Of a DNA stretch of 64,000 nucleotides, positions 7,301-29,751 are shown in pieces (position 1 is the stretch's first letter; each line of letters opens with the position of its first letter). Below the pieces are notes generated by a model. That model had not been told where the DNA came from. It was given only the letters and a program-made list of their open reading frames with translations, and did not search any database. The stretch comes from Aphrocallistes beatrix (Eukaryota; Porifera; Hexactinellida; Sceptrulophora; Aphrocallistidae). Position numbers and translations under genes: made by a program. Location: assembly GCA_963281255.1 (NCBI GenBank), contig OY725501.1, positions 2,457,674 through 2,521,673 of the forward strand. Direction: 5' to 3'.

Positions 7301-7966
7301 GTACACTGTCCATATCATAAGGATATCTCCCTTCAGGAGCTTAGTTTAATATAACAAACACAAAAATATTTTCAGAAATTTCGGCAAAGGTTCATGAGGA
7401 TAAGTAAGAATACCTCCTTTAATAGAACATTATTTGCCAATGAATGCCATAGACACTTATAAACTATCACTGTGGTTTCGACTAATTTATTATTCTAATG
7501 CTTCTAATGTTTCTTAATAATTTCAATACGAAACAGGATCATTCCAAACGTTGAATACATTCTTGTAGAAAAAATCTAAAATGATGCTAAAAGAATTCTA
7601 GGTTCTGGTGTGTTTAAAAACATTTGAAAAGTTGAAATCATAATGATAGTTATAAAACAAAATGTAAACAATGATCAAAAACCTGTAAGTTGAGTTCCCA
7701 ACTGCTCAATTGTAGCAGCACATCCTGCATTCAGTGGAGTTTTCACACAATATGGTAGTTTGCAATAGTCGTAACTCCTCGAGTTGAATTTATTGAGGAA
7801 GAACTTCATACAGGAGAAAACAGTGTTGACTGTAATATCACCACCCAAAATATCCAATTGTTGACTAGAAAGCCTAATGAAAAAATTGATGAAGTAAATA
7901 AGAACTAAGGGTGCATAGTTCAAACTTTGATTAGACAAGTAATGCATACCTCCCAATCTCCTCCAT
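1387..7966 (-). CDS. THOC7: THOC7-like THO complex subunit, five exons (257 aa)
   Basis: Join (minus): 7966-7950, 7864-7683, 4253-4159, 3718-3597, 1744-1387. The total is 774 nt and every junction keeps phase with GT and AG ends. THOC7 belongs to the THO/TREX complex, which couples transcription to nuclear mRNA export. The call rests on a YDA..EVIQ..PDQ stretch in exon four that matches the human THOC7 YDALAKVIQHHPDR region, an N-terminal segment (about residues 10-35) with the same spacing as the THOC7 start, and predicted helical, coiled-coil-prone sequence before and after it. The C-terminal tail is acidic and carries three copies of an EGEPNY motif, unlike human THOC7. The first coding exon has only 17 nt, so the start is the weakest point. 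Two other genes lie in its introns: MRE11 (same strand) and a ubiquitin-like gene (opposite strand). Confidence 0.7.
2258..3010 (+). CDS. Ubiquitin-like domain protein with Cys-rich C-terminal domain (250 aa)
   Basis: Residues 17-95 read as a ubiquitin fold: a beta start (WIEIEALDGHKCRIDI), a helix (ETTVDKLKSTLEWE), then KLDNSKTLGDYGVQCGD, which matches the ubiquitin pattern around L50-D58. The domain ends in AIRGG at 91-95, like the processed ubiquitin tail. A second domain (about 125-205) carries C145/C150, C179-x2-C182, C191 and C199, probably zinc-binding. The ATG at 2258 was chosen because a 3' splice-like sequence (TTTCAGATAG) ends just before it and the upstream reading is not ubiquitin-like; the frame is open to 2156. 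AATAAA follows 62 bp after the stop. The gene lies antisense within the last intron of the THOC7-like gene. The function of the second domain is unknown. Confidence 0.75.
   Translation: MASNLAEDSRKDGTEGWIEIEALDGHKCRIDIKKYSETTVDKLKSTLEWEYDCEKDEIKLMMQRGAVKLDNSKTLGDYGVQCGDKLQMTLAIRGGLNPTSKIDFVNLTKYNRNTDQLEGVERREIKLSGPRYHVVVKGLNFIAICKTVGCVAVNAIVVIQVGMPKENIDFSYQLENLSCPACKTEIPADDCLGMGMHMCKASVELKTEEKKEMYTIEAGNEFLQIISTKKEEKIAYRYIRIKLYELNTLI
3066..3311 (+). other. Orphan reading frame, possibly an exon remnant
   Basis: An open frame of 81 codons starts just after the Ubl gene and overlaps its polyadenylation signal. The residues from about 20 onward (SIRECFNRVEKSD to the end) look protein-like, with mixed charged and aromatic residues, and the local GC content is higher than in the flanks. 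I see no domain, splice sites or start context. It could be a pseudogene piece or chance. Confidence 0.2.
3072..3077 (+). terminator. Polyadenylation signal AATAAA of the Ubl gene
   Basis: AATAAA lies 62 bp after the stop codon of the ubiquitin-like gene, at a normal distance for an animal 3' UTR. Confidence 0.6.
4433..4438 (-). terminator. Polyadenylation signal AATAAA of MRE11
   Basis: The reverse complement reads AATAAA 24-29 nt after the MRE11 stop codon. It shows that MRE11 has its own 3' end inside the THOC7-like intron. Confidence 0.65.
4462..6342 (-). CDS. MRE11: MRE11 double-strand break repair nuclease (626 aa)
   Basis: MRE11 is the Mn-dependent nuclease of the MRE11-RAD50-NBS1 complex, which senses and processes DNA double-strand breaks. 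All phosphoesterase motifs are present: D29/H31 in ATDIHLG, D69 in GGDLFHENKPS, N132/H133 in GNHDDP, H218 in LHQNR, and H246/H248 in WGHEHD. The capping, DNA-binding domain follows (about 290-460). The C-terminus (about 545-626) is rich in Arg, Gly and Ser, like the GAR-type tail of animal MRE11. The protein is a little shorter than human (708 aa). It is a single uninterrupted exon with its own stop and poly(A) signal, and lies inside the 3.4-kb second intron of the THOC7-like gene on the same strand. No lesion is seen, so it is probably the working gene and not a dead retrocopy. Confidence 0.97.
   Translation of the reverse strand: MSWRDNYKTVRPVDERHDSDTIKILIATDIHLGFEEEDLIRGDDSFDAFEEVLMLASQEQVDLILLGGDLFHENKPSRSALHKCMSLIKQYCFGSRDVKIFRSIFPNDSRELMNYEDPNLNISIPIFTIHGNHDDPTGPGNLSVINLLSVAGLVNYFGKSDQIDKIEVDPLVVEKGITKLALYGLGAVRNERLYRTFSQNNVTFLRTHEEAFNLLILHQNRVKHGEKSYVKPEFIPTFMDLVFWGHEHDNNIVPFTFPVGNGYISITQPGSTVATSLSEGESGDKNVGLLYIKGNKYTIEPRVLTSIRPFPSPCEIFLEDRVDAFDDKGISEYISAKMDNLLEDVKTKFPDNPKLPLLRIKVHVPPHSYNANNIKRTFCAKYSKLVANPGEVVLFSKKAKRRGKSKDGLDESIMIDPEDPYVTAEESIIDLFQASVLDQELNLFHNNLLSLNLEQFVVKEEAKAIEHYSTQTLKKSLQIFKNQIESRPGLSSESMDLVKVKQELESIAYNPEVTDLSLSLNDSSDDDNYSRINDQTDDLIASQMSPNSSVRSPPTSPSGRPGPKVQLRTRGGMRRGAGIGYASSLSKPQKRSRSSRTDLTDSSDPGTTSRARGGATSKRGPKKRRI
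6542..6690. repeat. Tigger/pogo-like MITE remnant
   Basis: Sequence resembling GATAACCTTGATTATCCC at the left and TAATCGAGGTTCCACTG at the right is the degenerate terminal repeat pattern of the pogo/Tigger-type MITEs in this window. It lies in the spacer upstream of MRE11. Confidence 0.5.
6893..7072. repeat. Short MITE with CAGTGGAGTCTCC ends
   Basis: The left end CAGTGGAGTCTCCGAATAA and the right end AATACTCCACTG are inverted and flanked by TA on both sides, as expected for a Tc1/mariner-pogo type insertion. A related copy with the same left end begins at 35973. Confidence 0.7.
7258..7378 (+). repeat. Interspersed repeat 3' segment (two copies)
   Basis: A stretch with CGGACG, TCCAT, CATAAGG, ATCTCCC and AGGAGCT followed by an A-rich tail recurs at about 35560-35650. 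The A-rich end suggests a SINE- or LINE-like 3' tail, but I cannot name the family. Confidence 0.45.
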
Positions 7967-8936: not shown

Positions 8937-10318
8937 TCAGTCAACTAACTCTATGAATCCAGCATTTACTAGTATTTCCCGAGGGTCCATTTCTTTTGAA
9001 GTCTGCTTCATCAAGAAAGCAGCGAGATCCATGTTCAATTCATTGTCCTCCTTACTCATCATGATTGAATTCTGAGAAATAATACATTAGATATTTACGG
9101 ATGTATAAAACCAAATTAAGTGGAAATATAATATAAATAATCTTAAATAATTTCGGTTCTTTACTTAGCTCTACCTGTGCCAGTCTCTGTAAGGTCTGTC
9201 TGAGAGCATTGAGCAGTCTACAGAAGTCTCTGTACTCCAGTGTGTGGAAGTGGTACTCTAAATTCTTAACTGTCGCATCTGAGAGAGGAGTCAGATATTC
9301 TTCGGACTGATCGGATAAGTAATTCTTCATTTGTGTAAGGAATTGTTGTAGATTGAGAGGACTATGGGAGAAGGTATTAAATAGTTCTCGTTCGTGTAAG
9401 ATTTACAATTTCAGAAATAACTCACTCAGGAATATTGGAGACGATTATTTCTTTGAATCTATACAGCTTATGCTTCAGGGTTGATTCGGTGTTGAACTTT
9501 GGCTTGGAAGCAATGTATTTCCAGAATATGTCCTGCTCCAGAGCATTCAGGTCGTAGGGACACGTGTCCCCCTCTTGAAATGGAGTGTAGGTAGTGCGGC
9601 TGCGAATCAATTCAAATATCTCAAGGGAGTTCTCGTTAATCTTATCCATCGAAGTCCTAATAGACATCAGCGGGAATTAAAAGCAATAAAAGTAACGTAT
9701 CGGAGAGATATTCCTTCTCCTTTGAGTTTATAAAGTTACTCAGCATTAAGTGACAGAAGAATTTAACAGTTGGCTTTAATCTAGGCCAGCGCTGTCCAAC
9801 AGGCGGCCCGCGGCCTTGCTTTGTGCGGCCCGCGTTGCCTGCTTCAATCTCCCCCTTTTTGCCCACTTTTAGACAAATTCTCCAAATTTTTCCATATCAT
9901 GCATCTCGTTTTCTCGTTGGTAGGGACATATGGCTGACAGACCATGGTCCTACCAATTCTTTTCAATAGATATCAGCTTCTATTGTTCACGATACAAATT
10001 GTCCAAAATGCCTCTATCCATACCCATCCCGAGTGCACGCCCCTGTATTGCGGCCCGCCACTAAATGGTATGAAGTAGTTGCGGCCCGAAGTAAATATAG
10101 TCGGACAGCCCTGATCTAGGCGAAGTTAGGTGAATTAAGTTCTCAGCAACTCACCAGTAGTGGTTAATCTCATTGGGAGTTAGGTCAGAGACGAAAGCAT
10201 TCCTCGTATTCTCTTCAGTAGGAGTAATGGTGGAGGTTTCCAATTCCAAGGAACGTAGCCAGGGTAGTGCCTTCTTGTTCTCTGCTACTGTTTCAAGAAA
10301 TTCATTTTGAGTGGTAAT
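8937..10318 (-). CDS. RNF213: RNF213-like exons 7-10 (C-terminal end)
   Basis: Exon 7 (10318-10155) follows exon 6 in phase 0 and ends ...INHYW split across a TG|G codon. Exon 8 (9656-9426) begins at TCTATTAG|GACTTCG. Exon 9 (9361-9175) follows CCCATAG and exon 10 (9071-8937) follows TTCTCAG. Together they give about 239 residues, mostly helical, ending ...FIELVD. A hAT-type MITE sits in the intron between exons 7 and 8. An alternative donor (CTA|GTAAATG) inside exon 10 was considered and not used, because no downstream exon fits its phase. Confidence 0.8.
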
Positions 10319-13300
10319 CTGAAAGGATTATAGTAATGGAATAGTACATACAGTAGAACTCGGTTAGTATGTGCTCGGGATAAGACGTACTTCGGCTTAG
10401 TACGTACTAATTTCTTTGAACCAAAATTCATTGATTATATAGATTCCCATGTAATATCAACTCGGTTAGTAAGTACTGTTTTCTGATTCCAGGAGGGGCA
10501 CGTCTAATCCGAGTTCTACTGCATATCCTTACTATTAAAACTCGATTAATGTGTGTGTATATATATATGTATATATATATCTCTCTGTAACGAATTGATT
10601 GAAGAAACTACCAGGCGTAGAAAGCTGATTTTTGGCATGTGGGAGTCTTTTGGCTATGGCTCCAGTAAGTTCTGAGCTCAGACGAAAATGTCGACTCATC
10701 ATGGAATTATGACGTCATTGTCACATTAAAAGTTAAGCAATACAGTTATTCGAGCATAACTCAGCCATTATAGGAGATAGAAAGCTGAAATTTTAATAGA
10801 ATCTGTATACTAACATATATGGTACATCTGTGGTACAACTCTCATCCAAATATGATGACTCATCACTCTGTTATGACGTCATCATTAAGTATCAAAATTT
10901 TTAAAATTGACAAATTTGGTGATTTTTCGTACGATATCGATTTTAAAACTAAGATGAACATATTTAGAGATGTTATCTCCATTATAATTAACCAATGTCA
11001 CCTCCAGGCGACCAAAGGGAGCCTCCGGCGGACACGAAGTGTCCGCCAGCCGCGCAGCGCAAGCAAGCGAAGCCCGCTTGTGTTTATTAAAGTGAACATT
11101 ATCAACTCACCAGGTCGTGTATGACTAGGTAGAGTGCATCAGATCCCACCTCTGATTCTTCACTCAGACTGAGCAGACGAATGAACTTGGTGTCATCTTT
11201 AAGCGGTCCGAACTTCTCTTCTCTCCTGATGGCAGCACAGGGACCAGATCCGATCAGTCCGCGACACACCTTGACATACTCGTTGTAGAAGTGGTGGATT
11301 CTTTCGTACAGATTCTGAATGTCCACATTAAAGAAGAGCTTGCACTTCTCTTTAATTTTAGAAATAACCTGATTTATCGTCTTAGTCTCGGCATCCTTAC
11401 GAGTAATGAAAAAGCTGAGATTGGTATGGAAGATGCGATACAGTTTGATCAAGTTCGGAATAAGAATTGAGCTAATCCGAAAGCGCTTTCTCTCAGAAAT
11501 AAATCTATGAAGGATGGCGAAGGTGTTGACAAAAGCTTCCGGGTCGGTATCAACAGGTCGACACGACTCGATGGTATGCTGGAGGTGAGAGAATGTTATT
11601 TCCGGCGGATACCACTTCCTGAACGAGATGACGTTATAGGAGAACTCGGAGATAACTTGCTGCTGGCTAGCAGTCCTAACGTCTGCACGTAGCTCTCTGA
11701 TTCGTCTCAAGTTCTCCTCGTATACTCTGGTGTGAATGAAGGACTCATACACCAGCACTTCCTTAGTGGACTTGAACAGAGTATGCTGTAGAGGACTGGC
11801 AGGCTCTAAAGCTAGTCTGTAGAAATCGTAGAAACAGCTGGTGAGGAACTCTCCTAGCTCCTCTTGGGTTAGCTGCCATCGCAGTTGCATATGCAGCCAG
11901 ATAGTACGTATTTGGCTCACGCAGTAATGCCTGACAGGCTTCCATTCTGAAAACAAGGCAGAGCTCACACTCTCACTCGCGTTCGGTTGAGAGATAAGGT
12001 TGACTGAGAGAGCGCCAAAGTTCATCAGCGTCATGAGGTAGAAAGAGTGCAGCGTGAAGCTCTTACGATCAAAACTGTAGTAGTCCGGACGTCCAAAACT
12101 GCCGTCCTCGTTCAGCTCACAGCCGCAGTCATAGCGGACAGCCGAGATGGGCTTGGGGTAGAGGTTGGAGACCACGTAGGTGTCGCGGAGGGTCTCGGTA
12201 TTGAGGAAGAAGGCGGAGAGGTGTGTTGTATCGTTAGGAAGAGCAATAAACACGGCGATCAGATTACTCAAGATATTCCTTAGGATCACATCATCTGGAT
12301 CCTTCTGATCCAAGGAGAAAAACTCGAACAGATAATCCTTCTTCTCACCTGTCTTCTCCTTCAGGTGAAGTTTCATCCCCTGCATCTCGTAGACAGGTGT
12401 GTCTGGATTAAGAGGTTCACTCTGTTCCATTGATCTCACCATCCTCTGAGGGTTGAGGAATGCTAACAGAATTCTCTTCTTTCCCTCACTTAGTTCCAGA
12501 GTTCCAAACCTTTTGGAGTCAATCGCTTGGCACAGCGGCTCACTGGAAATTCCTTTAAGGTAGAACTCCTGGTATACACCCAACCAGATGTAGAGACGTA
12601 AGTAAGGTATTTCCTGAGACTTCTCTACCAGATTAGAGAGCTCGTCTATTCTCTTCTTTGTCTCATCAGGACTGTCGGCAGATGCGATATAGCGCATGAG
12701 TTCGTAACACTCTTTGTAAGATTTGTATCTCTTGTCCTTGATATTAGTCACAAATGGGAATTGGGGGATTCTCTCTTTCTCTATTCTCTCTAGTTTGGAG
12801 ATGCACTTATACAGCCAGGGCAGTTCATCCTTGGATAGCTTGAGCTGCTCAAGATAGTTCTCAAAGATCTCCATTGATATGCACTTCTTAGAAATGAGAT
12901 AGAGCATGGTCCAACTGTGTCCCCCCAGGGCCCCTCCTCCGAAGTTGTGATCATCAATCTGCTTCTGTATCTCCACAATACAATCAGGATTCCGCTCTAT
13001 GTAGTGGAGGACAGTACTGGATGGGTTGGGTTTGAACTGCTTGGAGTAGGAGCGGAGAATTACTTGGAATAAAGCTTGCTTTTCAATTCGAGAGATCACC
13101 GTTTCTTCAGAATTCAATTCGTAACCTAGTTTGGTGGCGACTAGCTCAGTGAAGATTTTGAATATGTTGACAAGCTCTTTTTCTCCGTGTAGCTGGATCA
13201 GCCTGTCTAGAGCTATGTGGTAGTAGAGGTGTGCTAGAGGCTGCTTCAAGGTAGGTTGCGTCTCCGCAGAACATTTCATGAATTTCCCTCCCAGGTCGTA

Positions 13301-16300
13301 ATAGAAGGGAATGTAATCTGACGGTACCTTCACTGGGTGAGCTGATAGGAGCTCGTTGCCAATTAATTGTTTCACCTGCTTATTGAAAAGAGTAATGTCA
13401 TTCGACTTGTCTCCTTCCTCCTGGTCACTTGTGTTGGTTAGGAACCTGGTGATCAAGTACTGGAAGGACCTAAATGTTAAAAGTCCCGGTTCAATTAACT
13501 GATCGCTTCCCTCTTTTGTATCTTTCGACGTTTTTGAATGGGGATGACTGAAGTGTTTAACTGCGCTGCCCGACCACACGAACTGTCTGTTCGCACTACG
13601 CAGAATCCAGCAGATAATCTTCTCATCAATCTGTCGGTTCACCTCGATGTGATGATGCAGGACTCCCTCTGCGAACTCCGTCTTAAGTTCTCTTGTTATT
13701 TCTGGGCGCTTAATATCCTGGCACGTGCTGGTGATTTGTTCAAGTCCCTTGTTAAACACAGGAATCAATTCAAACTTTCCTTTAGGCTGTAATCTCACAA
13801 ATATTGCTAAATCAAAAGCATTTTTGAGGAAATCTGGACTGATGTGGTGGTGTTTTCCGACAAGGTAGAGAGAGTGAATGAGTGTGGACATGGATTTCTG
13901 ATCCTCTGGCAGGTTGTAGTCGAGTGCGTCCGGCTGTGAAGATCCGGACAGCTGGATGATAAGGTTGAGGTACACTGAGACCCAACTTTTGAATTTATTC
14001 AGATTAGGGCGAACCGAGATCCTCACCACACTGTCGTGCAGCATAGTGATGAAGTAGCTGTAGAGGGGAAGCGATCGCTGCTCGCCCTGTATCACTGACA
14101 TCATATTTGGATTTTGAATTGACTCCAGGAGTTCAGGCTGGCTGGCAAGTCTCTCCAGGGAAGAGAATATGAATAGCAACTTGCTAAAGTCAGGTGGATT
14201 GGAAAAAGACGAGACGTGTAACTTTAGCAGAGAACTAGCAATATCTTTCTGATCGAAGTCATACCCCCAGAAACGAATCAGGGTGATGAAGTTATGGCTG
14301 TGCTCTTGCTTCCAAAGCTGACTCGTAGATGAGAAGGATAAGTGTGAATAAGCAAAGTCTTCGAGGTAGGACAGCCACAGGTTTTGGTCTAGAATGCTCA
14401 TCGTAAATTTAATAAGCGGGTACTTGTCCATATTCCTGACGAGGTTCTCCATCAATAACTTGTTGAGGTCTTCTGACCCGGGCTTGTTGGCTCCCTGACT
14501 TGATTTAGCCTTAGTTGTGTTTATAGTCATGTTCTTGTTCACTTCTTGAATGCTGGACTGAATTGCGTTATCAAAGGCCCTGACGATATAGGAGGAGAAA
14601 GGGAATTTTGGTAGATGAACAACATTTTTCACTTGGGAATCTAAAATGTGTGAAATATTCTCAATTTCCTCAATGCTAGGCTTACTGATCAGTCGCAAAA
14701 TATCTTCGAACAGTTTCACATTTTCTTGATTGAAATCCACGTCTTGATTGGGATGGTCAAAGAGCACTTCCAGGTTTAGGCCCTCGTTGATCTTATAGGT
14801 CATGAGAGTGAGAAATGAGGTGAAAAGATTCCAGAAGCTGGTCACTACTAGGTCAGAAAGGCTGAGGTTGGAAAGGTTCTGAAAGATGGAGTTAGCGTAA
14901 TTGTGTATCTGTTTTTGTATGAATGTGTAATCAAAATAGGTGGTAAACATCTCACACATAATCTGGTAGATATCTGTTTTCACAAAAATAGACTCCATTA
15001 GTTTGGAGCGATCGTTATGGGTAATCGAGTTTGAGTTGAATATGCAGTGAATAGAAGTTCCGAAAATGATACGAGAGATAATATTGTCTGTGAGTGTGGG
15101 AAGTTTATCTGTGAGAGACTTCAGCATTGTGGTCTCTATTGACTTCAAGCTGTCCTTTTGGTCTAGAAGAGTGAGGGAGAGCCACTCCTGGATGCTGAGA
15201 GGGGAGTTCTCCTTGCTCTTCTGGAGGTTGTCTAGGTAGCAGTGGTCCCAGCCGTGCAGGAAATGCGCGGGATAGCGAGATAAGGAGGTTGCCCCGGTTT
15301 TGAGAGGGGTGCGGTTGAAGATAGTCGGCGGGTAGTGCAGCAGAATGACTACCAGTTTGTTGAGAGAGTAGTCTGCTCCGATCTTGGTGCTAGCGACGCT
15401 CTCCTCCTCGTCAATCATTATCCTCACGAAGTTGATTCTCTGTTGAGAGATGTGCTGCATGTCTGCTATGAAGAGGAGGACGCGCTTAGTTGGATGGTTG
15501 AAGAAGTCGCGTAGGATTGTCATGAACTGGTCCTGAGTCTTAATGGCGGACAACTTGAATAAACTGGTGTTTGACTCAGCTCTGCTCTCACCAGCCATGG
15601 GGATGAGTTCTTCGACATCTGCATGCACCGTGCTGGAGATAGACGGGTTCAAAGTGCTCGTGTACTCATTCGGGAGGGAGAGGATGAAGGAAGTGGTGCG
15701 TGTGTAGCAGATCAATTTAGTGGGTCGGGTCAGGTCCATATCTCTCGATTCATCTTGAAGCGCAACATACTTGGATACGAGCTTCTTGAACTCGAAGTGA
15801 TCCTGATGCACGAGGTAGGTCTGTTTGAATGTGTGACTCAGTTGATCAAACTTGACAATGAGAGCCTCGGGCAGGGCGAGTTGCAGCAGACGGACACAGA
15901 GGTACCTTATAAGGAAGTGTACGATCATTCCGATCACAAGACGCTCCCCAGGCAGTACCCTGAGGGGGAGCAAGTAGAGGAATTTCTCCTGAGCAATTTC
16001 TTCATCCATAGGGCCATTCTCCTTCATGAGAAGTTCTATGGCGTCGCTTAAAAACTGTTCAATGTTCTGTGGATTAGCTCGGATTACTTTGCTAAGATTT
16101 TCAACTTCAGAAGTAGACTCCGGCTCAATCTTAGAAGCGGTGGAGAGTATATCTGAAGCGATCTTGTTCCTCTCCTCCACTGGCAGGTAAATGAAGTTGA
16201 ATCCAGCTAGCTTCTTCAATTGCGAGAGCATAAGGTCTAGGTACTGATGAGATGGAGGGTAGGGTTTATTCATACCATCTTCCACTTCATCATCATCATC

Positions 16301-19300
16301 ATCATAATTTGCGTCAGGATCAATTGATTCATTAGGTTCAGACTGTCCCATGGACTTCAGCTTCTTTTTAATTGCTTCATAATCGAAACCTGGTTTCGGG
16401 AGCATGTCGATCAGGAGAGATTCTAAACTATCCTCTATGTTGCCATAGAATGTCTCAATCTTAACTGCTCTGATAAAATTTCTCACCTAGAAGAGAACAT
16501 AATATATATAGTAGAACTTACACATTTCGATCACTGTACTCTGGAATTCAGCTAACAGACTTTTTAGTGTGCTTCCTATACTAATATTATTTGAATTATA
16601 GATCCTATATATATATTCATATAGGTGCAAAGTTCTAAAGTGAGTGTTGGTGTCCGGCCGGTCGTCATTCCTCCCCTAGAAACCACTAAGAGTTTAAAGA
16701 TGACTTGGAATTATTCCTGAAGGTGGGACAGTATAGGAAGTTTGCACCTCACCTTTCGATTTTCAAAATCTGCTAAATCATATAATGATTTTCCGCTTCA
16801 AAACACTATAACTTTCAAACGTGTCGTAATTCGGACAAATATATATCCATTTGAAGGAATCGAGGTGTAATTTTGGTAAAATTATTCCCTTCGAAACTTG
16901 TCGGATCAAACCATAGACTCCTTTAATAAATAAGGACTGCAGGCGTTCAATCTCGGGTCTTGAGTCTTGGGTTCATTGTGTATTATTGATATCTCGTAAT
17001 CCGCTGAAGTTAGACATGGGAAATGCATACTTACTATTAACGAATTGATTGAAGAAATTGCCAGGCACAGAAAGCTGATTTTTGGCATGTAGGAGTCTTT
17101 TAGCTATGGCTCCAGTAAGTTCTGAGCTCAGACAAAATTGTCGACTCATCATGGAATTAGGGCGTCATTGCCACCTTTTTATAATTAGAAATTTCAGTTT
17201 TTCGGCTATAACTCAGCCTTTTTAGATGATAGAAGGCTGAAATTTTAATAGAACATGTATATTAATATAACTCACATATGACGCAACTATTATCAAAAAA
17301 GGATAACTCATAACTCTGTTATGACGTCATCGTCACGCATCAAAATTTTAAAAATTGACAAATTTGGTGATTTTTCGTGCGATATCGATTATAGCAGTAG
17401 GACAGACGTATTTAGAGATGTTATCTCTCACATAATTAATCAATGGTGACCACAAGAGCCCAAAGGGCGCCTCCAGCGGACACAAAGTGTCCGCCAGCCG
17501 CACAGGGCAAACAAGCGAAGCGCGCTTGTATATATATCTATATGTATATATATATCTGTAACGAATTGATTGAAGAAACTGCTAGGCGCAGAAAGCTGAT
17601 TTTTGGCATGTGGGAGTCTTTTGGCTATGGCTCCACTAATTTCTGAACTCAGCCCAAAATGTCGACTCATCATGGAATTATGTCGTCATTGTCACCTTTT
17701 TTATAAAGGTGAAATTTCAGCTTTTCGCCCATAACTCAGCCTTTTTATTAAGTGATGGAAGGCTGAAATTTTAATAGAATGTGTATATTAATATATCTCA
17801 CATATGGTACAACTATCATCAAAAAATGATGACTCATCACTCTGTAATGACGTAATCATTACGCATCAAAATTTTAAAAATTGACAAATTTGGTGATTTT
17901 TCGTGCGATATCGATTATAACAGTAGGACAGACGTATTTAGAGATGTTATCTCCTTTATAATTAAGCAATGTGACCCCAGGCGCCTGCAGGGCGCCTCAG
18001 GCGGACACAAAGTGTCCGCCAGCCGCGCAGCGCAAGCAAGCGAAGCGCGCTTGTAGATAAATAAATATACATTAATCGAGTTTTAATACAGTGGAACCTC
18101 CATAATCCGGCATTCAGTGGGAGACGAAAAAAATGTCGGATTAGCAAATTGTCGGATTATCGAATAACCTCCATAATCCGACATTTGTGGAAAATCAGCA
18201 AAATGTCGGATTATGGAGGTAAAATAAACTCCACAATCCGACAATATTTGACATACGAATAATTTGTCTGATCAAAGAGGTAAAATAACCCCTCCATAAT
18301 CCGACATTTTTTGATAGACGAAAAAATTGTCGGATTATACAGGTCGAATTTGCATTACTGGAAAATCATTAAATTGTCGGATTCCGGAATAGCGAGGTGT
18401 CGGATTATAGAGGTTGTTTTCTATAGAAAAACGATCCGTGAACAGAAATAATGTCGGTTTAGAGAAATGTCGGATTACAGAGGTGTCGGATTACGGAGGT
18501 TCCACTGTAGTAAGGATTCATTTCCCATGTCTAACTTCGCGGATTACGAGATATGTATCAATAAAACACTCAAGTTTCAAAACCCGAGATTAAACGCCCA
18601 TACTTAATAGAGCTTAGGAATGTATTACCAGTATATATAAATATGGTGTCAAAGTACTCATATCCGTTGTTAAAATTTAGAATAGTCGCCATATGATTGC
18701 GCAATTGGTTATATTTGTGACAAATTTACTGGTTTTTGAGGTCGTTTGGGGAAAATTTTTTCGCATAGAACCGAGATGTTAATGGGTAATTAATACGAAA
18801 AATTTGGAAATTTTCTATGGAATGTTGCTACATTCCAGTGTTGATATGGAAACGTGTTTTGGTCAGTTGGGTTATATCTTGAAAACCGCAAGAGCTAGAC
18901 ATTCAAATGTAATTCCGTTTGATAGTGAATAGATTATTTCCTATTAAGTGATAGTATAATTTATTTTTCTAAATTTAATGGTTTACGAATTATTAGACAA
19001 TTTATCGTATTGGTCACATTTGGCAATTTGTCGAATATCTCGTAAACCATTGAATTTAGACGTCAAAATTATATTATCGCTTAGTAGGAAGTAGTCAAGT
19101 CGCTATCAAATGGAATAATATTTGAATGTCTAGCTCTTGCGGTTTACAAAATATGACTCCGACTGACCAAGACACGTTTCCATAGCAACACTGGAATGTA
19201 GCAACATTCCATGAAAAAGTTTCAAACATTTCGTATTAATAACCCATTCACATCTCAGTTCTATGCTAAAAAAATTATTAAAAAAACACTTAGAAGTGCC

Positions 19301-22300
19301 CCTAAACGACCTCTGAAAACCAGTAAATTTGTCACAAATATAACCTATTGCGCAATCATATGGTGACTATTCTAATTTTTAACAACGGATATGAGTACTT
19401 TGACACTATATTTATATATACTGGTAATACATTCCTAAGCTCTATTGTGCTTTGTTAATGATTTAAGGCAGCTCATGTATTAGTTCAACCATCTTCTACC
19501 GCATCCCTAGTCCAAAATCCGCAAGTTACTGTGAAGCCTTATATGCAGTAGGCTATGATGATACCAATTACAGTCGAACCTGTCCATAACGGCCACCCAG
19601 GGGACTGGTCAAAATGGCCATTATATACAGGTAGGGACCATAATACAGTGTCAGATTGTAACAACGATGCAATGCAGTGACAATCTATAAATGTACTGGA
19701 CATCACTGATGTGCGTTACTACTTATGTTACTGATGCTAGAAACTACATCATCGTTCGGAATAGGGATCGCAATAAACACATGCATGTAGTTATAAACAT
19801 ATGGCCGTTGGGAAGCTGAGGGGAGTACCGGTCCCCCTAGTTTCATCCCTGGGCTACTGGACAGACTAGATACAGATCTAAATAATTTAATTATGATTAC
19901 CTGATTGATGGCAGATTTGACAATGATCTTCATGCAAGGTGGGAGAGCATCAATGGAAGCTTGCAGTAGGTCGTCTTGAGAAACGTGAAACTTCTCAAAC
20001 CTGTTCAAAAACGGCTGAGGAGCATCTTTGAGAAATGATTTATGTAAGTGCACAATACACTGAAAGTTAGGATCTACTCTACACGGTTTAGAGTGGGAAC
20101 CTATGGCGATATTTGCGTAATAGCGGCGGCCCTTATCATCCTCAACCTGTTTGTAGTTCTGGTTGAAGAGGTCATAGAAGTTTTCGTATATTTCATCCGC
20201 CTGCGAAAGAATGACAGTCTTCCCTTCAGATGCAGCATGCTTAATGGCAGATATCAGGATCACCTTCTGCAACTCTCCGTCACCTGGAAAGTCACTGCCA
20301 ATGAACATCCGTGTGTCTTCAATATTCAGGATATTGTAGTGGTACAGCAGTCGCGTGAGAGAGTCATCCTCACTCGGGTCTATGATCATCTTATACCGTA
20401 CCTCCACTAACTCTTCTTCTTCTCCGTCTTTGCTCCTCCGAGTCTGAGGACGGATGCTCCTGTCCGCTAAGCTCTCCCTCAGAATCTCTATGATAGTCCT
20501 AGCGTTCTCACCGTACACCTCCTCCGTAATGAACTCAGTGGCTACATTCTTGAAGCAGGATCTATCCTGTCCATTGAAGTTCCTCTCCACCGCCCTCAGA
20601 AGGTACTTCTCATCCTGGTGATCTCGGTTCCTGCGCAGGTAGCCGATCATGTGGATGAAATCACGGAGTCCGTAGAACTTGGAGTAGACAGCCTTGTCCA
20701 TCAGGTTTTTATAGGGTACACATATTCTAGAGATAAACTGCTGACTAGGCGTAGTGTGGTCAGTGCTCTTCGTAGATTTTAAGAAGCAGCCCTGCGCTAG
20801 AGTTTCTAAGTCGTCTTGCTGCTGGGGCCTGAATAGATTGATCGCGCGGTTACTCTTAGCAGCGTCTAGAATGTGGTTAGATATTGCTACGAAAGATACT
20901 TTAGGTCTATCCAGGAAATAGTGCAAAGCCTTCAGAGATTCGTGACTCTCTTCTGGCAGACCAGCTTCGTCCATAAACACAACCGAAAAAACTTTAAGTT
21001 CAGCTTCATCGTGTGTTTCCTGTCTCTTTATTGCGATTTTGAACACATTTTCGATTTCTGTCGAGGTAGAGCGTCGTGAGCATTGGTAGTAGTGAGGCTC
21101 CAATGCTGGAAACTTGGGATTGCGGAAATACTCTTTTGGAGACTCGGCACCCTTAATGTTACTGATGGCCAGATTGAAAGAGAGGGTTTTTGAAGTGCCA
21201 GGGGCTCCTACGATGATTAGTGGGATTTTGGACATTGTACAAATCAGTGTGGCAAACAAGTTTTCTTTCAAAGCCTTGGTTTTAGCAATGCCAGGTGGGA
21301 TCTTCACCACATTTACGAATCCATCCACATAGTTATTCAGAATCGCTACAAACTTTAGACCGAACTTAGTATCTAACTTTGTAGAGAATTCTTTCCGGAA
21401 GTGTTCATCCAACCGGAAGTAGTACACGAGCCCGATAGCGACAATCACCGACTCCTGAGTGATGTCGAGCTCATTTTTCTCATTCATCTCTCCACGCCTG
21501 ATGGAGTTCAGAAAATCCGTGATTTTGAACACACGCTGTATATCACGTTGGCTCACACAACTTTTGGATCGTATTTCGGCTTCCTCTTTTTCAAATCCAA
21601 CTTTGATTAGTTGGGATTTCGCGAATTTCCTCACCAATTTCTGAGCCTTAGCAATCTGTGCACTGATATTACTCAAATCGATCCCTTTGATCTTTTGTTG
21701 AATATGTGATACAGAGAACTTCTGCTGAATGTACTCGTGTTCCTGGTGCTTGTTAAGAGCCCCGTAGTCCCAGAGTATCCGGGAGAGGGTAGGGTGCAAC
21801 TTCCTCACGTAGTACCAGCCTAACACCCAATCTTCCACCTTCGTATCCACCTGCAAGGTGGCAGTTACGGAGCGGTGAGGGTTACACGCTGCTACAATGA
21901 ACACGTTATCTGGGATCTTCTCTCCGTCTATGTATCCGTCTATCACGATCTCTTTAAACAGCCCGAGGCAGGAAGAGGTGTTAATCTCGTCCAGAAAGAC
22001 GGTAACAATAGGAACTTGGATGGTATGGTCTATTGGCTTCTCTGATGGGATTAGAGGCTTTGAGAGCATTTCAGCTTTCTCAAAAATCTCAGTGAACTTG
22101 TACTTGATGTCAGTCGGCGTGAGAGCGGAGTGCACATTAATTTTAATGAAGGTCTCTATCGGCTTGGCTGACAGAAGTGCGATTAAGAACCTCGACGTGT
22201 TCTCGGGTGACTGGAACCTGATGGCCGTCTCAGCTATATGGTGGTCGATCAGAAAGAGGTTGAATGCAGGCATCCGACAGAATGTCTCGAGAGGGCGGGA

Positions 22301-25300
22301 GAATTCCTGATAAAGAATTTCGCAGGCCTTGAGAACTGAGTCTTCAGGAGGTTGTCTTCTTGCAGAAATCGCTTCGTTGAGACTGATCAGTGCTCCTAGG
22401 TTACCCGATTCGGGTTGGTTGGGTCCGCTGAATAGAATCTGGTCGATGTTCTTCTTAATGATGTCCATGATGGCGTCTACAGTTTTGTAGTAAGCTCGAT
22501 GGATGGTCTTATTCCACAGCTTAGACAGAAACTCGAGCAATTTGGTCTTCCCTACCCCAGTCTCCCCTACGATCACTACTGGATACCGACACATTCTGCG
22601 CTCGTGAATGTTCAGCATCTTCAGCAGGAAGTCGACCGTTAGCACGTACTCCTCCTCATTGATCAGCTCTGATATGGAGTCAGTGCTCTCGAGACTGAGA
22701 GCATGTGCTAGCAGCTCTTCGAGCTTGCTTCGAGTCCCCAGGTCTTTGAAGTTAGGCACGATAATTCCGAGCGTTTTGAAATCCTTTCTCAGCTCAGGAT
22801 CCAACATATTAGGATTGAGAGACAGGAATTTGATGGTGTGTCCACCCCCACTGGTATTGTATATCAGCTGCTGGTGTTCGTTTACGCTCCAGTCTTCTTT
22901 GCAAGAGGGATCACAAAATTTGTTGACTTCGAATATCATTATTCGCATCAGAGTCGAACCCAACTGCTTCGTATTGGTGAACACTTGTCTCTCATTATCG
23001 AATATTATCCCAGTCCCTGTATTGAAAGTAAAGTACGGCAGGTGTTCTAACACGTTACAACGGCGGAGCATATAGCGAACAAACAACTTCTGTAATATTT
23101 TCCTAGTTTGAACGTGCTCCTTCATGTAATTACCCAGTAAAAACGAACATTCTTGCTCATTCAGGTCTTTTTCTGTTGAAAATCTCACTGGAATCCTCTT
23201 TTTTTCATCGTAGAGGCGGTTTATTCCTCTATTTCTTCCTTTATCTTTATCTTTAGTTGCCTCAAAATCATAATACGCTTTGAGATACTTGCAAATCAAC
23301 TGGACGTCTTTATCTATCTCATATGGCACATCATAACCAATTTCCTCGTGTTTGCCTATCGTCTTGAAAATAGGAATCTCCAATTGAAATTCGGATAAAT
23401 TGTTTCGTGGATCTTCGTTCTTCGTTGGTCCTTCAGAACCAGTTTCCTTGCCTAGGAGGGAGGCTGGACGAGAGGGCACTTCAATGTACAGCTTCCAGTT
23501 CATGCCTGAGGGGACGCGGAATACGAGAGAGGAGCTGCTGTCCGAGATGTGATTGAGCACGAGGAAGTCGAAGAAAAACCAATTCACTTTACTCATCAAT
23601 TCGAGGTATTCAGAATAGTCTTTAGAAGCTTTGTCTTCTTGAAGCAGACAAGTGATTGTGAAATTGAAATAAATACACAATCCATGGGCATTCTCAAGTC
23701 TGATATTCTGGTTCATTTTCTCGATGATCGCAGGAACACTGAACGCCTCATTGATAGAGATAACCAGATGGGGACTGTCTTTTATCATGTTACGAATGTA
23801 GTGCGTTTTTCCATTTCCTTCAAGACCGTATACTAACTCAATCTTATCAAACACTAGGCTAGGAGGAAATGAGATCAGTTTATCAGGTGTAGTGGACACT
23901 TTAACTTTAACACCAGGCAGTTCGTGCAGGAGAGACTGTGCGGTCTCTATGTAATGGATCGGAGCAATGGACTGAGAGGGTTTCTGGGACTCGGCGATAT
24001 GCTTCATCGTGTGCTCCTGCAGCAGATTGGGCAGCTTGTTGACTTCAACTAAGGAATAGACAGGAGTGGTGAATACAGTGGTGCGATCGAGGAACAAGCT
24101 AAGCTCTTCAAAAGATGTGTTGGCATTACAGTGAAGCAACTGAAAACTTTCAATCTTTCTATTTTGGTAAATCTTCTGAATGAGGGATAAGACGTCTGAT
24201 TGGCTGAATCCGTAGGCGCGTTGGATTGTCTGACAAGCAAGTATCCTAGTACTATGCTTTTCTCTAAGAGTTTTTTTGGGAGTATGCACCTCATCCTGGA
24301 TTAATAATTCCTCTTTAAGATCTTTGTCCTTTACAAGAATAGTGATGATGGATGACATCACTTCAGCAGGCGAGACCAGAGTAGACCTACCTTCTAATTG
24401 CTTCTTCGCCGTGTTGAAAGATTCCAGTAGACTCGTTTCTATCATGCGAAAAATTCTAAAATCGTGGTTGAACAGAAAGCTAACCTGGTTCGCCGCTCGA
24501 TTCCAAGCCCTCGCTTCCATCAGAGAGACAGTAGTGATGATACGCTGTATCGGAAAGAAGAGGAGGTATTTAGTGTTCTGCTGAATTAGAGTATATCTCT
24601 CTTTCCATTGAGTGAGCAGAGTGGCACTCTCATCTAATATTTCCTTCAAATGATCCTTCGTAGTGCTACATCGTATGGGAATAACTTGCTCTTGGTACTC
24701 AGGGTGACCTAATGAGGAAAGTTCTAAATAAACTTCAAACAGTTTCCGCATAGTATTGTGGAAGTGTTGAAAGTCAGCGATGTTAGCAATCCGTCGCTCG
24801 CTGAGTTTGCTTTGTTCTAGGAAGCCCAACTTCCTTACAAACTCGTCAATTTTATCTGTGTTCATTTTCTCCCCGACTCGAGACAAAACAGATTCAAAGG
24901 TAGGTGGATTGGCATTCGGAAGTGCAGGAGAGGAAGGAACAGAGTGCGGGAGGTAGGAATCTCTACGGTTTTGATGGAGCGCAGCTATCTTAGTGGAAGC
25001 AGAATAGTTCAGAACAATGGAAGATGATTGTTTCCTTATTTTGAGGTTAGAATTGGGTAGGCTTGGCATGGATTCCAAATCTCTTTCTCTTTCCGGGTTG
25101 CCCAGTACAATTTCGTATTTTCCAGTGTCGAGGATATCTTGGAGCTGTTGAGACACGTTCTCGGTAGTCTCGCCTTCAGCTAGAATAAACCAGCGCCGAA
25201 TAAGCATGATGTTGTTGTTTACGGTTTTAAGCTGAGAGTATCCGGTCTCGGAGCCGATAGTCATGCTGGAGTATTGCTTGAGGAATTCCTTGAGAGACTG

Positions 25301-28300
25301 ATTCCTGTCGAAGAGAGGGAGCATGTAGATGAACGCGATGGAGAGGTGGCTTAGCACGGTATCATCGTAATCTTCATCTTGCTTCTCGGAAGTAATCAAG
25401 TTCACTTGATTGTAGAAACTTTCTCTATTCTCATGTAACTTCTTCTCACGAAGGAATTTATAGAACTCGACACTTTCGGTTAGAATAGGGAAGAGGAGAT
25501 AGCGTTGGATGGGCATATCGTTAGTCACCGCACTTACATTTGCAAGAATCGAAGAAGCCATGGAAATAGTCAAATTATTGCGATACTGCTCGTTCCTCAT
25601 CTTTCCAATAATCCCCTGCAACTGTTTGTAATCTTCAGAATTAATACAACTAGTCAATGTATACTGTTCGCATACATCTGTGATGTGGTGGAGGTAGTCA
25701 GCGATCTTGAGGAGTTGGAAGAGGTCCATCACTCCCAACTCTCCGCCCATTCGTTCTCCTAATGGAGCGAATTTGGTTATGTCAGCTTGTATCTTGGTGA
25801 AATCCAAAGATTCTAGCTTCAGGTTTTGGTTGATATTCTCTATTTCTGAATAGGTTGATTTGCCCTCACATATCCTGATTAGTAATTGATAGCAGTCAGT
25901 AAGACACTCAACAAACTGATCCATAGAGAGATATGGGACAGAGTTATCTCCCTTTAAACTGCCCAGTTTGTCCTGTTGACATTTGTGAAGACAGGCGGTG
26001 AATAGCACATTTTCTCTAAGAGCAAAGTGAGCTAAGAATTCGTGAACTGACGATTTTGAATTTTCAAAGAGCGGTAGGGAAAACATCTTGAAGCTGTCAA
26101 TGACTATTTGACAACGTCCGTTGAACTCATTCAACAGGATTCCCTCATTAGGAGTAATGCTAGGAATAAATACAATTTTGTTTTGTTTATTTCTGTGGTG
26201 CGCATTATGAATAGAAAATAGCATTTCGATTTCTCTACGAATTCCTTCAGGGACATTCGTTTGGTTTTCCTCGATAAATACTGGGAGGTACGTAAATTTC
26301 ATTTCATTCTCTATTTCAAGTTGAAGGAATAGAATCGTTCTCATTTCTTCAGTGATAGCACCAAAACTTTTCATCTTCTCCTGAATAACCTCTGTATCTA
26401 TACTGGGCAGGTGGCAATTCTTAAACAGTTGGTTCAGATTCTGTAAATTATTCACTATTTCCGTGTATTCCAACAGAGTACAGTTTCCCTGCATAATTCT
26501 TTCATGTTGCTTGTGGACGATGGAACTGCTTCTCTTGCAGTACTCTATAAAGCTGTTCAGGTTCTTGTCTTCCCAAGCATAGTCTTGGAATCCACGGAGC
26601 TTTTGGTCGAATTTATCATAGATAAACAACAGAGTTATGACCATATAAGGAAATTTAGAATATTCCAACCGGTCAAACCTTAAGCTTCTGCTGATTACAG
26701 AGAGAATCCTCCACAAGTAGTAGTGCTGATTAGAAGTCTTGAGTTGTTCTAGAGTTAGCTGCTGAGTTAGTTGATGAGAGATTGTCTCTAAAGATATAAT
26801 TAACGATTTACAGTATCTGAATTTGTCAGGAGAGGAGAGTAAGGACTGATCTGGAACAATAGCTCTGCACAGGGGATCCAATATTGTTACATGGAGAAGG
26901 GATGGAATTCTCAGCTTTGGAATTAAATCTAAGAGATGTAACAAATTCTCATGGATTTGAATATGCAAACTTCCTTTACACTCTCTCTCGACGACACTCA
27001 TGAAGCTAGGAATCTGTTTATTTTCTTTATCAGTTGGAACATACTCTTTCCCATATGCTGGTAAGTCAAAGTTCAAACAGTCACAAATGAATTCATAACC
27101 TGATTTGCGGAGTAAATATTTTTCAAATATTCTTTTGAGTGTAACAAATATGGATTTAGGAGGGTCCTTGATCGCGAATATTGTCTGCAATAAATCGTCC
27201 CATATCGCGTCTTTAAGATCTACCTTTGACGAGGGCTGATAGTTCATAAAATAATCGTAAATTGCAATTCTAGAGAGCAAATTTACAGAGAATCTTTTCA
27301 ATATTTCATGAAACATTACAATGTCATACCTGTGAGATTGTTTAACCACCATCGTGATCACCTCCTTCTTGTACTCTCTAATCCATGGTTTGATGAGAGA
27401 CTCAGGACTGGTCGGGATCTTAATCTGATCATAAAAGTTACGCATCAGAAGAGAAAATTCTTCAGGATTGTACACTTTTTGTTGGAAATAGTGAATAATG
27501 TTACCCAAAATAAGTCTGAAAATATCGAACCAATACTTCTTACACACCTCCAAACCAGATTTCTTATTCATTTCTTGTACATCCCTGGTACTAGCAGTGC
27601 ATGTTAACGTGGCTAGATTGGACATTATAATGCACATTATATGTACGCTAGCTTTGGGATTCTCTTGCACGAGGTAATCAAATGCTGCTTTCCTTGACCT
27701 CATGAACTCAGTTATAAAGAGTAAATAGTTAGAAATGAAATCTACAATTTCTGTCAATTCATATTCCCATCTTAGAATGAATTCGAGAACAATATTGAAG
27801 TTGTGAAATGTGAATGAATTCATGCTGGCAGATACCCATCTCATCAGGGTGGAGAGTAAGAATCTTTGTTCGAAAGAGAGACCTAGTTTCAGTCCAAACT
27901 CAATACCACACACTCTGACTGAATTAAGAGTAGAACTCTCAAAAACGGAGAGTTGGTCGTAATCTACATACTGAATGATATACTCGAACCATCTACTATG
28001 ACCAGGCATTTTGAAACATTGGTTGCACAGCACAATAACATTGTACCAGAGTAGTTTAGTTTCTAGCTCTTGCGGCTTATATATCTGTTTCATGTGATAG
28101 TGCTTGCTACCTGCCTTATGTGTACCAAAGAACTGAATGTTGAATAATTGAATCAATTCAAAATTGAGATTTTCAATCTTTCTGAGTTTAAATGCATTGT
28201 CTTGTGAAAAAGTTCCAAAATATCGTATGGAGGTCGCAATCACATCCGGTGGTACCTTGATAAATCTGTCTAATATGAATTCCATTGCTTCAAGTGCTTG

Positions 28301-29751
28301 GTTCTCTTTAGAATCTTTAGTGCTATCATAGAAGCAGTTAATTTCTGAGAAAATCATTAAGTATAACGGCCAGTCCACTTGAACGTGTTCGTTGAAAATA
28401 ACTTTGTTCTTTAAATATTTCGCAATCTTGTTGAGTATTCCCTATGCAAATATACACAATAAAATACTACATATTTAGATTAGACACCGCGCTTCGCTTG
28501 CATGCGCTGCGCTGCTGGCGGACACTTTGTGTTCGCCAGAGGCGTCCTTTGGACGCCTAGGCTCACATTCATTAATTATAAGGTAGACAACATCTCTAAA
28601 TAAAGTTTATCTTACTGTTAATCGAAACCATTCGAAAAATCATAAAATTTGTCAATTTCACAATTTTTGATGCGTAATGATGGCGTCATAACAGAGTGAT
28701 GTGTCACCATTTTATGATGAGTGTTTTATCATATTTGAGATATTATATAATTATATTAATACAGTACACCCTCGCTAATCCGAACAGCTCTGTGCCAATG
28801 ATCTAAAAAATCGTTCGGATTAGTGAATTTGTTCCGATTAGTGAAATAACACTAATTCAATGGGGTATTAACTATTAAAAAATTGAATTGTTAGAATATT
28901 AGGATAATATTTTGTTATAATTACTTCTTTAATGAGGTTTATCAATCTTATTGAAGTGTATAATATTATAAACTTTGATTTAAAGCATAGAGGCGAAAAA
29001 TATTATATTTCGGGTGTTCGGATTAGCGAGGGTGTACTGTATACACAGTCTATTAAATTTCATCCTTCTATAACTTAAAATGGCCGAGTTATAGTCGAAA
29101 AACTGAAATTTCTAACTATAGAAAAGGTGACAATGACGTTCTAATTCCATGATGAGTCAACATTTTCGTCAGAACTTAGTGGAGCCATAGCCCAAAGACT
29201 CCCACATGCCAAAAATCAGCTTTTTGTGACTGGCAGTTTCTTCAATCAATTTGTATATATATACAAGCGCGCTTCGCTTGCTTGCGCTGCGCGGCTGGCG
29301 GACACTTTGTGTCCTCCAGAGGCTCCCTTCGGTTGTCTGGGGTCACATTGATTAATTATAAGGGAGATAACATCTCTAAATACGTCTGTCCTACTATTAT
29401 AATCGATATCACACGAAAAATCACCAAATTTATCAATTTTTAAAATTTTGATGCGTAATGATGACGTAATAACAGAGTGATGAGTGATCATTTTTTGATG
29501 ATAGTTGCATCATATGTGAGGTATGTTAGTATACAGATTCTATTAAAATTTCAGCCTTCTATCTCCTATAATAGCTGAGTTATGCTCGAATGTATTGCTT
29601 AACTTTTAAAAATGTGACAATGGCGTCATAATTCCATGATGAGTTGACATTTTGCTCTGAGCTCAGAACTTGCTGGAGCCATAGCCAAAAGACTCCCAAA
29701 TGCCAAAAATTATCCTTCTGTGCCTTGCAGTTTCTTCAATCAATTCGTTAC

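What the first reader, a model, noticed from the sequence alone, without database searches (positions are those of the whole stretch)
11111..16486. RNF213 homologue of full length without visible RING or RZ zinc fingers
The reconstructed protein has 5188 aa, near the human 5207, and the AAA3/AAA4 motifs are intact, yet exons 6-10 contain no C-x2-C pair at all. The E3 half is retained at full length and unbroken. Either the ligase chemistry was lost while the AAA motor was kept, another residue set does the work, or zinc fingers arose or were lost in this lineage.
Basis: partly seen in the sequence, partly recalled or inferred. Interest (0 to 1): 0.72.

Follow-up and report, generated by a model that had tools for sequence, protein, structure and literature searches.

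The report
RNF213 giants lacking ubiquitin-transfer fingers
The window carries an intact giant gene of the RNF213 immune-ligase family that keeps the ATP-driven motor but lacks both zinc fingers tied to ubiquitin transfer, and the same animal genome holds many more RNF213 relatives without the catalytic finger, so in this family the motor seems able to work without the ligase.

Summary
Observation confirmed. The exon at 11111-16486 (minus strand) follows an RNF213-type AAA exon in frame and is open for 1792 codons. Neither it nor the four tail exons of the model holds a RING or RZ finger. Two paralogues on the same contig share this exon (29% identity), also without either finger; dN/dS between them is 0.30, and the one whose AAA exon was read keeps the AAA3/AAA4 motifs. 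Their matching intron is 60 and 64 bp, leaving no room for a hidden exon. Stretches near both ends of the half match RNF213 E3 modules. The middle, where RING and RZ would lie, could not be placed. The genome also holds an orthologue-like RNF213 with RING and RZ, and 15 RNF213-type loci whose RZ slot lacks the zinc ligands: 18 of 28 loci found lack RZ. Best reading: ATP-switched RNF213 pseudo-ligases kept for a scaffold, coat or regulatory job. No structure prediction or RNA was available; species not named.

The parts
19901..28441 (-). exon with the RNF213-type AAA core (2847 aa in this exon)
   Evidence: phmmer to RNF213 PDB chains E 4.4e-61, residues 1928-1983 and 2146-2827; splice sites and frame
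22544..22567 (-). AAA3 Walker A, GETGVGKT
   Evidence: alignment to RNF213, motif scan, conserved in the paralogue L056
21980..22000 (-). AAA3 Walker B region, DEINT
21185..21208 (-). AAA4 Walker A, GAPGTSKT
20963..20983 (-). AAA4 Walker B region, MDEAGL
16487..19900 (-). intron between AAA and E3 exons, swollen by repeats; 60 and 64 bp in the paralogues L035 and L036
11111..16486 (-). single exon with most of the E3-module half, no RING and no RZ
   Evidence: open frame, splice sites, Pfam 0 hits, paralogues of equal architecture
14348..14824 (-). stretch homologous to the first part of the RNF213 E3 module (P0001 residues 555-713; the paralogue's matching part aligns with PDB chain residues about 3233-3459 of 4841)
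   Evidence: profile-profile score 35.0 against at most 23.0 in 16 column shuffles; paralogue to PDB
12101..12121 (-). C-E-L-N-E-D-G, holding C1456, the only invariant Cys in the C-terminal two thirds of the exon; its place relative to the RZ slot is not established
   Evidence: negative profile tests
10155..10318 (-). tail exon
   Evidence: splice sites, frame
9426..9656 (-). tail exon; together with the previous one matches a late part of the genome's RING/RZ-bearing RNF213 (blastp E 2.7e-4)
   Evidence: that part of the paralogue matches RNF213 PDB chains near their C-terminus
9175..9361 (-). tail exon, similar to a downstream stretch of L035/L036 (38% over 39 aa)
8937..9071 (-). last coding exon with TGA stop

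Best explanation
The gene encodes an RNF213-family protein whose AAA3 and AAA4 nucleotide-binding motifs are complete, and whose E3 half keeps recognisable RNF213 stretches near both ends but has no RING and no RZ. Since RZ supplies the catalytic Cys/His pair in mammalian RNF213, the protein should not transfer ubiquitin by the known route: it is a pseudo-ligase. Likely action (inferred): ATP binding and turnover in AAA3/AAA4 drives a conformational switch that lets it bind a target surface or build coats, or co-assemble with and regulate the RZ-bearing RNF213 paralogues. Shown: gene structure, homology of the AAA core and of two stretches of the E3 half, absence of both fingers, constraint between the paralogues, RZ ligands missing from 15 other loci. 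Inferred: ligase inactivity, ATPase activity, coat or regulatory role, immune context.
For: AAA homology and motifs. Two E3-half stretches above shuffles (35.0 against at most 23.0 in 16; 38.1 bits against at most 25.0 in 200; the second lies near the RNF213 C-terminus). No RING/RZ by Pfam or motif, with positive controls in the same genome. Two paralogues equally finger-less; dN/dS 0.30 between them, Fisher P 2e-10. Only 4 of 21 window Cys kept in the paralogue (19%; all residues 26%), at most 3 invariant C/H in 80 aa, fewer than one zinc site needs. Published: RZ carries the catalytic Cys/His dyad and ATP binding switches the E3 (PMC12075652, passages); RING is dispensable (PMC7311170, passages); RNF213 coats on T. 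gondii vacuoles need ATPase but not RZ (PMC11549300, passages).
Against: No expression, protein or structure data. The middle of the E3 half, where RING and RZ would lie, was not placed: profiles fail, and of three middle segments tried by hhalign two fall below their shuffles and one is slightly above (23.5 against 20.4) at a place I could not interpret. phmmer supports the C-terminal match only weakly (E 0.02). The CTD, where E2 docks in mammals, was not tested. The coat role is borrowed from a mutated mammalian protein on one parasite; on bacteria coats do need RZ. An unknown catalytic residue cannot be excluded.
Confidence: 0.6

Rival explanations
1. The C15 group branched off before the fingers were part of RNF213, so the state is ancestral and RING/RZ were gained later in RNF213 proper.
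For: The window AAA exon is far from vertebrate RNF213 (about 209 bits), while the genome's C16 copy scores 1153 bits. The three C15 genes have an intron-poor E3 half unlike the C16 copy.
Against: RZ ligands are missing from a still visible slot in 15 other loci of the genome, so loss is common here. Length after the AAA core (2050 aa) is close to that of an RNF213 chain in the PDB (2021). No outgroup was available.
Confidence: 0.2
2. Ubiquitin transfer persists with another residue, for example C1456 in the conserved C-x-L-N-E-[DE]-G loop.
For: C1456 is one of only four invariant Cys of the exon, in a conserved loop of its C-terminal third.
Against: Cys are less conserved than the average residue (4 of 21). 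The loop's place relative to the RZ slot has no profile support. No partner His was identified. (Odds lowered from 0.12 to 0.10 on checking: the C-terminal match lies ahead of the E2-docking CTD, so it does not speak for E2 docking.)
Confidence: 0.1
3. RING and RZ are encoded in exons that were missed.
For: The window intron 19900-16487 is 3.4 kb, its minus-strand frames hold five CxxC, and RNA was not available.
Against: The same intron is 60 and 64 bp in the two paralogues. Much of the window intron is repeats. The six exons join in frame without gaps. The genome-wide RZ search listed none on this contig, and pattern scans of 6301-33400 found no RING and no RZ-like C-x2-G-H except two near 30.4-30.8 kb.
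Confidence: 0.04
4. The gene is a decaying pseudogene.
For: Loss of catalytic domains.
Against: Open exons of 2847 and 1792 codons; the E3 exon open in all three members; dN/dS 0.30; Walker motifs kept in window and the one paralogue read.
Confidence: 0.03

Closest known systems
RNF213 (mysterin), vertebrate
   Same: AAA core sequence, AAA3/AAA4 motifs, order AAA then E3 half, homologous stretches near both ends of the E3 half, about 2000 residues after the AAA core
   Different: No RING, no RZ, so no catalytic Cys/His pair of the known kind; E3 half mostly in one exon; very distant in sequence
RNF213 of the same genome with RING and RZ (C16 pair; L026-L028)
   Same: One giant AAA exon, E3 half
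   Different: Keeps RING and RZ in separate small exons and matches vertebrate RNF213 at 1153 bits in the AAA exon
RNF213-type loci of the same genome without RZ (C1 and C6 clusters, 15 loci)
   Same: RZ absent
   Different: Their RZ slot is still visible as the same exon pair with the zinc ligands gone; the C15 group has no slot that I could recognise
Pseudo-E3s (BARD1, TRAF2; RING pseudo-ligases among TRIMs)
   Same: Ligase scaffold kept without activity
   Different: RING-type; not AAA giants
ZNFX1
   Same: Shares the RZ finger with RNF213 (PMC12075652, passage)
   Different: Helicase that has RZ; no RNF213-type AAA core (recalled)

Membership tests
RNF213 | RNF213-type AAA core with competent AAA3 and AAA4 motifs | tested here: met
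   phmmer E 4e-61 to RNF213 chains; Walker A/B intact
RNF213 | E3 module scaffold (E3-back, shell, core, CTD) | tested here: inconclusive
   A stretch at the start and one near the C-terminus match; the middle was not placed; CTD not tested
RNF213 | RING finger | tested here: not met
   positive control
RNF213 | RZ finger with Zn ligands and Cys/His dyad | tested here: not met
   positive controls
RNF213 | ATP-regulated ubiquitin transfer | not testable with these tools
   needs biochemistry
pseudo-E3 / pseudoenzyme | homologous to an enzyme but lacking its catalytic residues | tested here: met
   RZ and its dyad not found; homology
pseudo-E3 / pseudoenzyme | no catalytic activity | not testable with these tools
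   needs assay
dynein / midasin AAA giants | closest sequence match is dynein or midasin | tested here: not met
   9 of 10 PDB sequences hit are RNF213, the tenth is a chance-level hit at E 0.26; dynein Pfam models only below their cut-offs

The most novel reading that the evidence does not exclude
Ligase-free RNF213 is a large natural class: in this lineage the ATP-driven switch, and perhaps coat formation on intracellular targets, is the selected function, while ubiquitin transfer was dropped repeatedly (18 of 28 loci found without RZ, and RING homology found only in one gene pair), leaving a few complete ligases among many motor-only partners.
Probability: 0.3. Interest if true: 0.78.

Novelty: new variant of a known kind. 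Interest (0 to 1): 0.62.

Why it matters
It is open how far the AAA machine of RNF213 acts apart from its ligase. Natural RNF213 homologues that keep the motor without the catalytic finger, next to complete ones in the same genome, give a direct comparison. They would also tell which parts of the giant E3 scaffold have work to do other than ubiquitin transfer, which bears on moyamoya mutations that cluster in that scaffold (PMC7311170, passages).

Tried and rejected
Aligning by eye the loop P0001 1452-1475 with the RZ finger of paralogues (a 'GRP' seemed shared) was not upheld: profiles of the exons before and after RZ (23 and 17 sequences out of 25 pieces given) score the C15 half no better than shuffles, and the two C15 paralogues lack the 'GRP'. 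hhalign of other E3 segments: e3mid 15.2 and RINGpost 12.5 lie below their null maxima (23.4, 22.8); post2 23.5 lies slightly above its own (20.4, 16 shuffles) at P0001 1383-1444, as (1363-1444, score 26.7); I could not reconcile its place with the RZ exons and do not use it. For the C16-based profile I left out matches at E above 3, on the minus strand, with stops at E above 1e-4, and two others by hand. PDB search with the three-member profile gave three chance-level hits. NCBIfam gave nothing; PADLOC gave one weak AAA match, E 0.028. Relatives in viral and prokaryote contig collections: none confirmed. The weak C15:2974385 match lies in a frame with URGCP-like GTPase and VWA domains; the other weak one, C15:2955921, was not examined. 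The first hhalign run with realignment was uninformative; the pre and post sets failed and were rerun; a longer shuffle run timed out. A first gene model was off by one base at two donors, corrected.
Full report
What is there. On the minus strand an AAA exon (28441-19901) is followed by one long exon (16486-11111) and four small ones ending with a TGA at 8937. The internal junctions have AG/GT and the reading frame is continuous: 4877 aa from the start of the AAA exon, 2030 of them after it. Exons upstream of 28441 were not modelled. The AAA exon matches RNF213 chains of the PDB with E 4e-61 in two stretches (residues 1928-1983 and 2146-2827), the second reaching residue 3140 of a 5161-residue chain.

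No RING, no RZ. Pfam gives 0 families for the exon and for all 3 members of its group. The whole-genome scan with the RZ model lists 20 hits, none on this contig. Pattern scans of 6301-33400 on both strands find no RING, and only two RZ-like C-x2-G-H, near 30.4 and 30.8 kb, outside the modelled gene. Five CxxC lie in minus-strand frames of the large intron, none in a RING pattern. The absence of CxxC from the E3 exon is itself expected by chance (0.25 expected). The same Pfam library finds RING and RZ in single exons of paralogues.

Hidden exon. Much of the only large intron (19900-16487) is repeats: copies of a family that also lies at 10556-11087, and a fold-back element at 18606-19446. In the two paralogues the same intron is 60 and 64 bp by its splice motifs. 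A missed RING/RZ exon there is therefore unlikely.

The group. A search of the genome with this exon finds three loci, all on contig C15: the window and two others at 3.14 and 3.62 Mb. Each has it as one open frame (1769 and 1762 codons in the two paralogues), 29% identical to the window. The two are near copies, with dN 0.016, dS 0.054 and ratio 0.30. Between window and paralogue, 84% of synonymous sites differ while 30% of aligned residues are kept. Only four Cys are invariant (C197, C260, C511, C1456). Cys are kept less often (4 of 21) than residues overall (26%), and no 80-residue stretch holds more than three invariant C/H. So no shared zinc site is visible. AAA3/AAA4 motifs are kept in the one paralogue whose AAA exon was read (L056).

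Is it an RNF213 E3 half? Two places say yes. Residues 555-713 align with the first part of the E3 module of the genome's own RNF213 (score 35.0; 16 column shuffles reach at most 23.0). The tail exons align with a late part of the same protein (blastp 38.1 bits, E 2.7e-4; 200 shuffles reach at most 25.0; phmmer only E 0.02, still first). That late part matches RNF213 PDB chains at about residues 4397-4690 of 4841; the stretch shared with the window lies ahead of the CTD as numbered in PMC12075652, and the CTD itself was not tested. Between these brackets, where RING and RZ belong, nothing could be placed with confidence: exon profiles fail, and of three hhalign segments one is slightly above its shuffles at a place I could not interpret. 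I withdrew a by-eye placement of the RZ slot.

The genome around it. The C16 copy (L026-L028) is an orthologue-like RNF213: its AAA exon scores 1153 bits against vertebrate RNF213 chains, and its E3 exons match at E 8e-37 with RING and RZ aligned. Querying with its exon before and into RZ finds 28 places. I set aside three: the C7 frame, which carries RZ and which I take from recall to be ZNFX1-like, and two weak C15 hits (one lies in a GTPase gene; the other was not examined). Of the other 25, ten reach into the RZ finger. Fifteen (10 on C1, 5 on C6) stop before it. I fetched and scanned all 15: none has an RZ zinc-ligand motif in the slot exons. RZ-like patterns turn up elsewhere in 6 of the 15 pieces (L037, L043, L047, L048, L049, L052), outside those exons or broken by a stop. 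In 9 of the 10 C1 loci the exon still has a donor 32 codons after the FFPA motif, with other sequence where the finger should be, and the next exon keeps its H-V-L-G-D-P-F-like end in 14 of the 15 (not found in L048). One of the 15 has a TAG in the matched exon and may be dead. With the C15 trio this makes 18 of 28 RNF213-type loci without RZ. An AAA exon was seen for 9 places in the C1 and C6 clusters, 8 without a stop inside the match (which scored 16 of 70 candidates). The RZ-bearing loci vary too: of 8 second RZ halves read, all keep the catalytic-Cys position, while the His position is Tyr in two and Arg in one (in one other it is shifted by one), and one locus has Asp for the zinc-binding His (positions mapped by spacing from PMC11549300, passages, and the alignment). 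RING homology reached RNF213 loci only in the C16 pair, 2 of 7 hits, the other five being away from RNF213 loci, and a wide RING pattern hit 1 of 6 RNF213 regions and not L055; diverged RINGs elsewhere cannot be excluded.

Mechanism. In mammals RZ carries the catalytic Cys and its His partner, and ATP binding switches the E3 (PMC12075652, passages). RING is dispensable (PMC7311170, passages). Coats on T. gondii vacuoles form without RZ function but not without ATPase function, whereas coats on two bacteria need both (PMC11549300, passages). A protein with this AAA core and no RZ should thus be a pseudo-ligase that can still switch with ATP and perhaps coat targets or partner with RZ-bearing paralogues. 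The last step is inference.

Known before? RNF213 gene expansions are in print (bivalves PMC9993606, passages; salmon PMC12234341, passages), and pseudo-E3s are recognised in general (PMC13061254, passages; TRIM pseudo-ligases PMC11992055, listing only). The listings of searches showed no paper on RNF213 homologues lacking RZ; only open PMC papers are searched, the listings were capped, and most subscription papers are missing.

Limits. No structure prediction, no RNA, no named species, no outgroup. The genome search scores only the best candidates, so counts are lower bounds. 'Animal' is inferred from the gene content (RNF213, MRE11, hAT transposase, introns), not from a taxonomic search.

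Noticed in passing
G000 contigs C1 (8.10-8.46 Mb), C6 (0.54-0.68, 1.20 Mb): Clusters of RNF213-type loci, 15 in all, with the RZ slot visible but without zinc ligands; AAA exons seen for 9 places, 8 without stops inside the match.
   Followed up: partly
C4:1471116 (L021), C6:3218209 (L024), C6:2947291 (L053): RZ-bearing RNF213-type loci where the general-base His is Tyr, Tyr and Arg; the first also has Asp for the zinc His. They look half-way to losing activity.
   Followed up: partly
window 33403-35217 (+): Open frame of 604 aa resembling a hAT transposase (Pfam hAT match below cut-off).
   Followed up: no
window 4465-6348 (-): MRE11-like gene downstream of the RNF213-type gene (Metallophos and Mre11_DNA_bind).
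   Followed up: no
window 7675-7908 (-): Open stretch with an acceptor-like start and several Cys downstream of the stop at 8937; by eye its phase does not fit the last exon; unexplained.
   Followed up: no
window 10556-11087, 17006-18061, 18606-19446: Repeat family copies and a fold-back element beside and inside the gene's introns.
   Followed up: partly
L041 (C15:2971502-2977705): Open frame of 2068 aa with URGCP-like GTPase and VWA domains; recalls interferon-inducible very large GTPases.
   Followed up: partly
C7:4962256 (L002): RZ finger inside a 2031-codon open frame, probably ZNFX1-like (name recalled, not tested).
   Followed up: no
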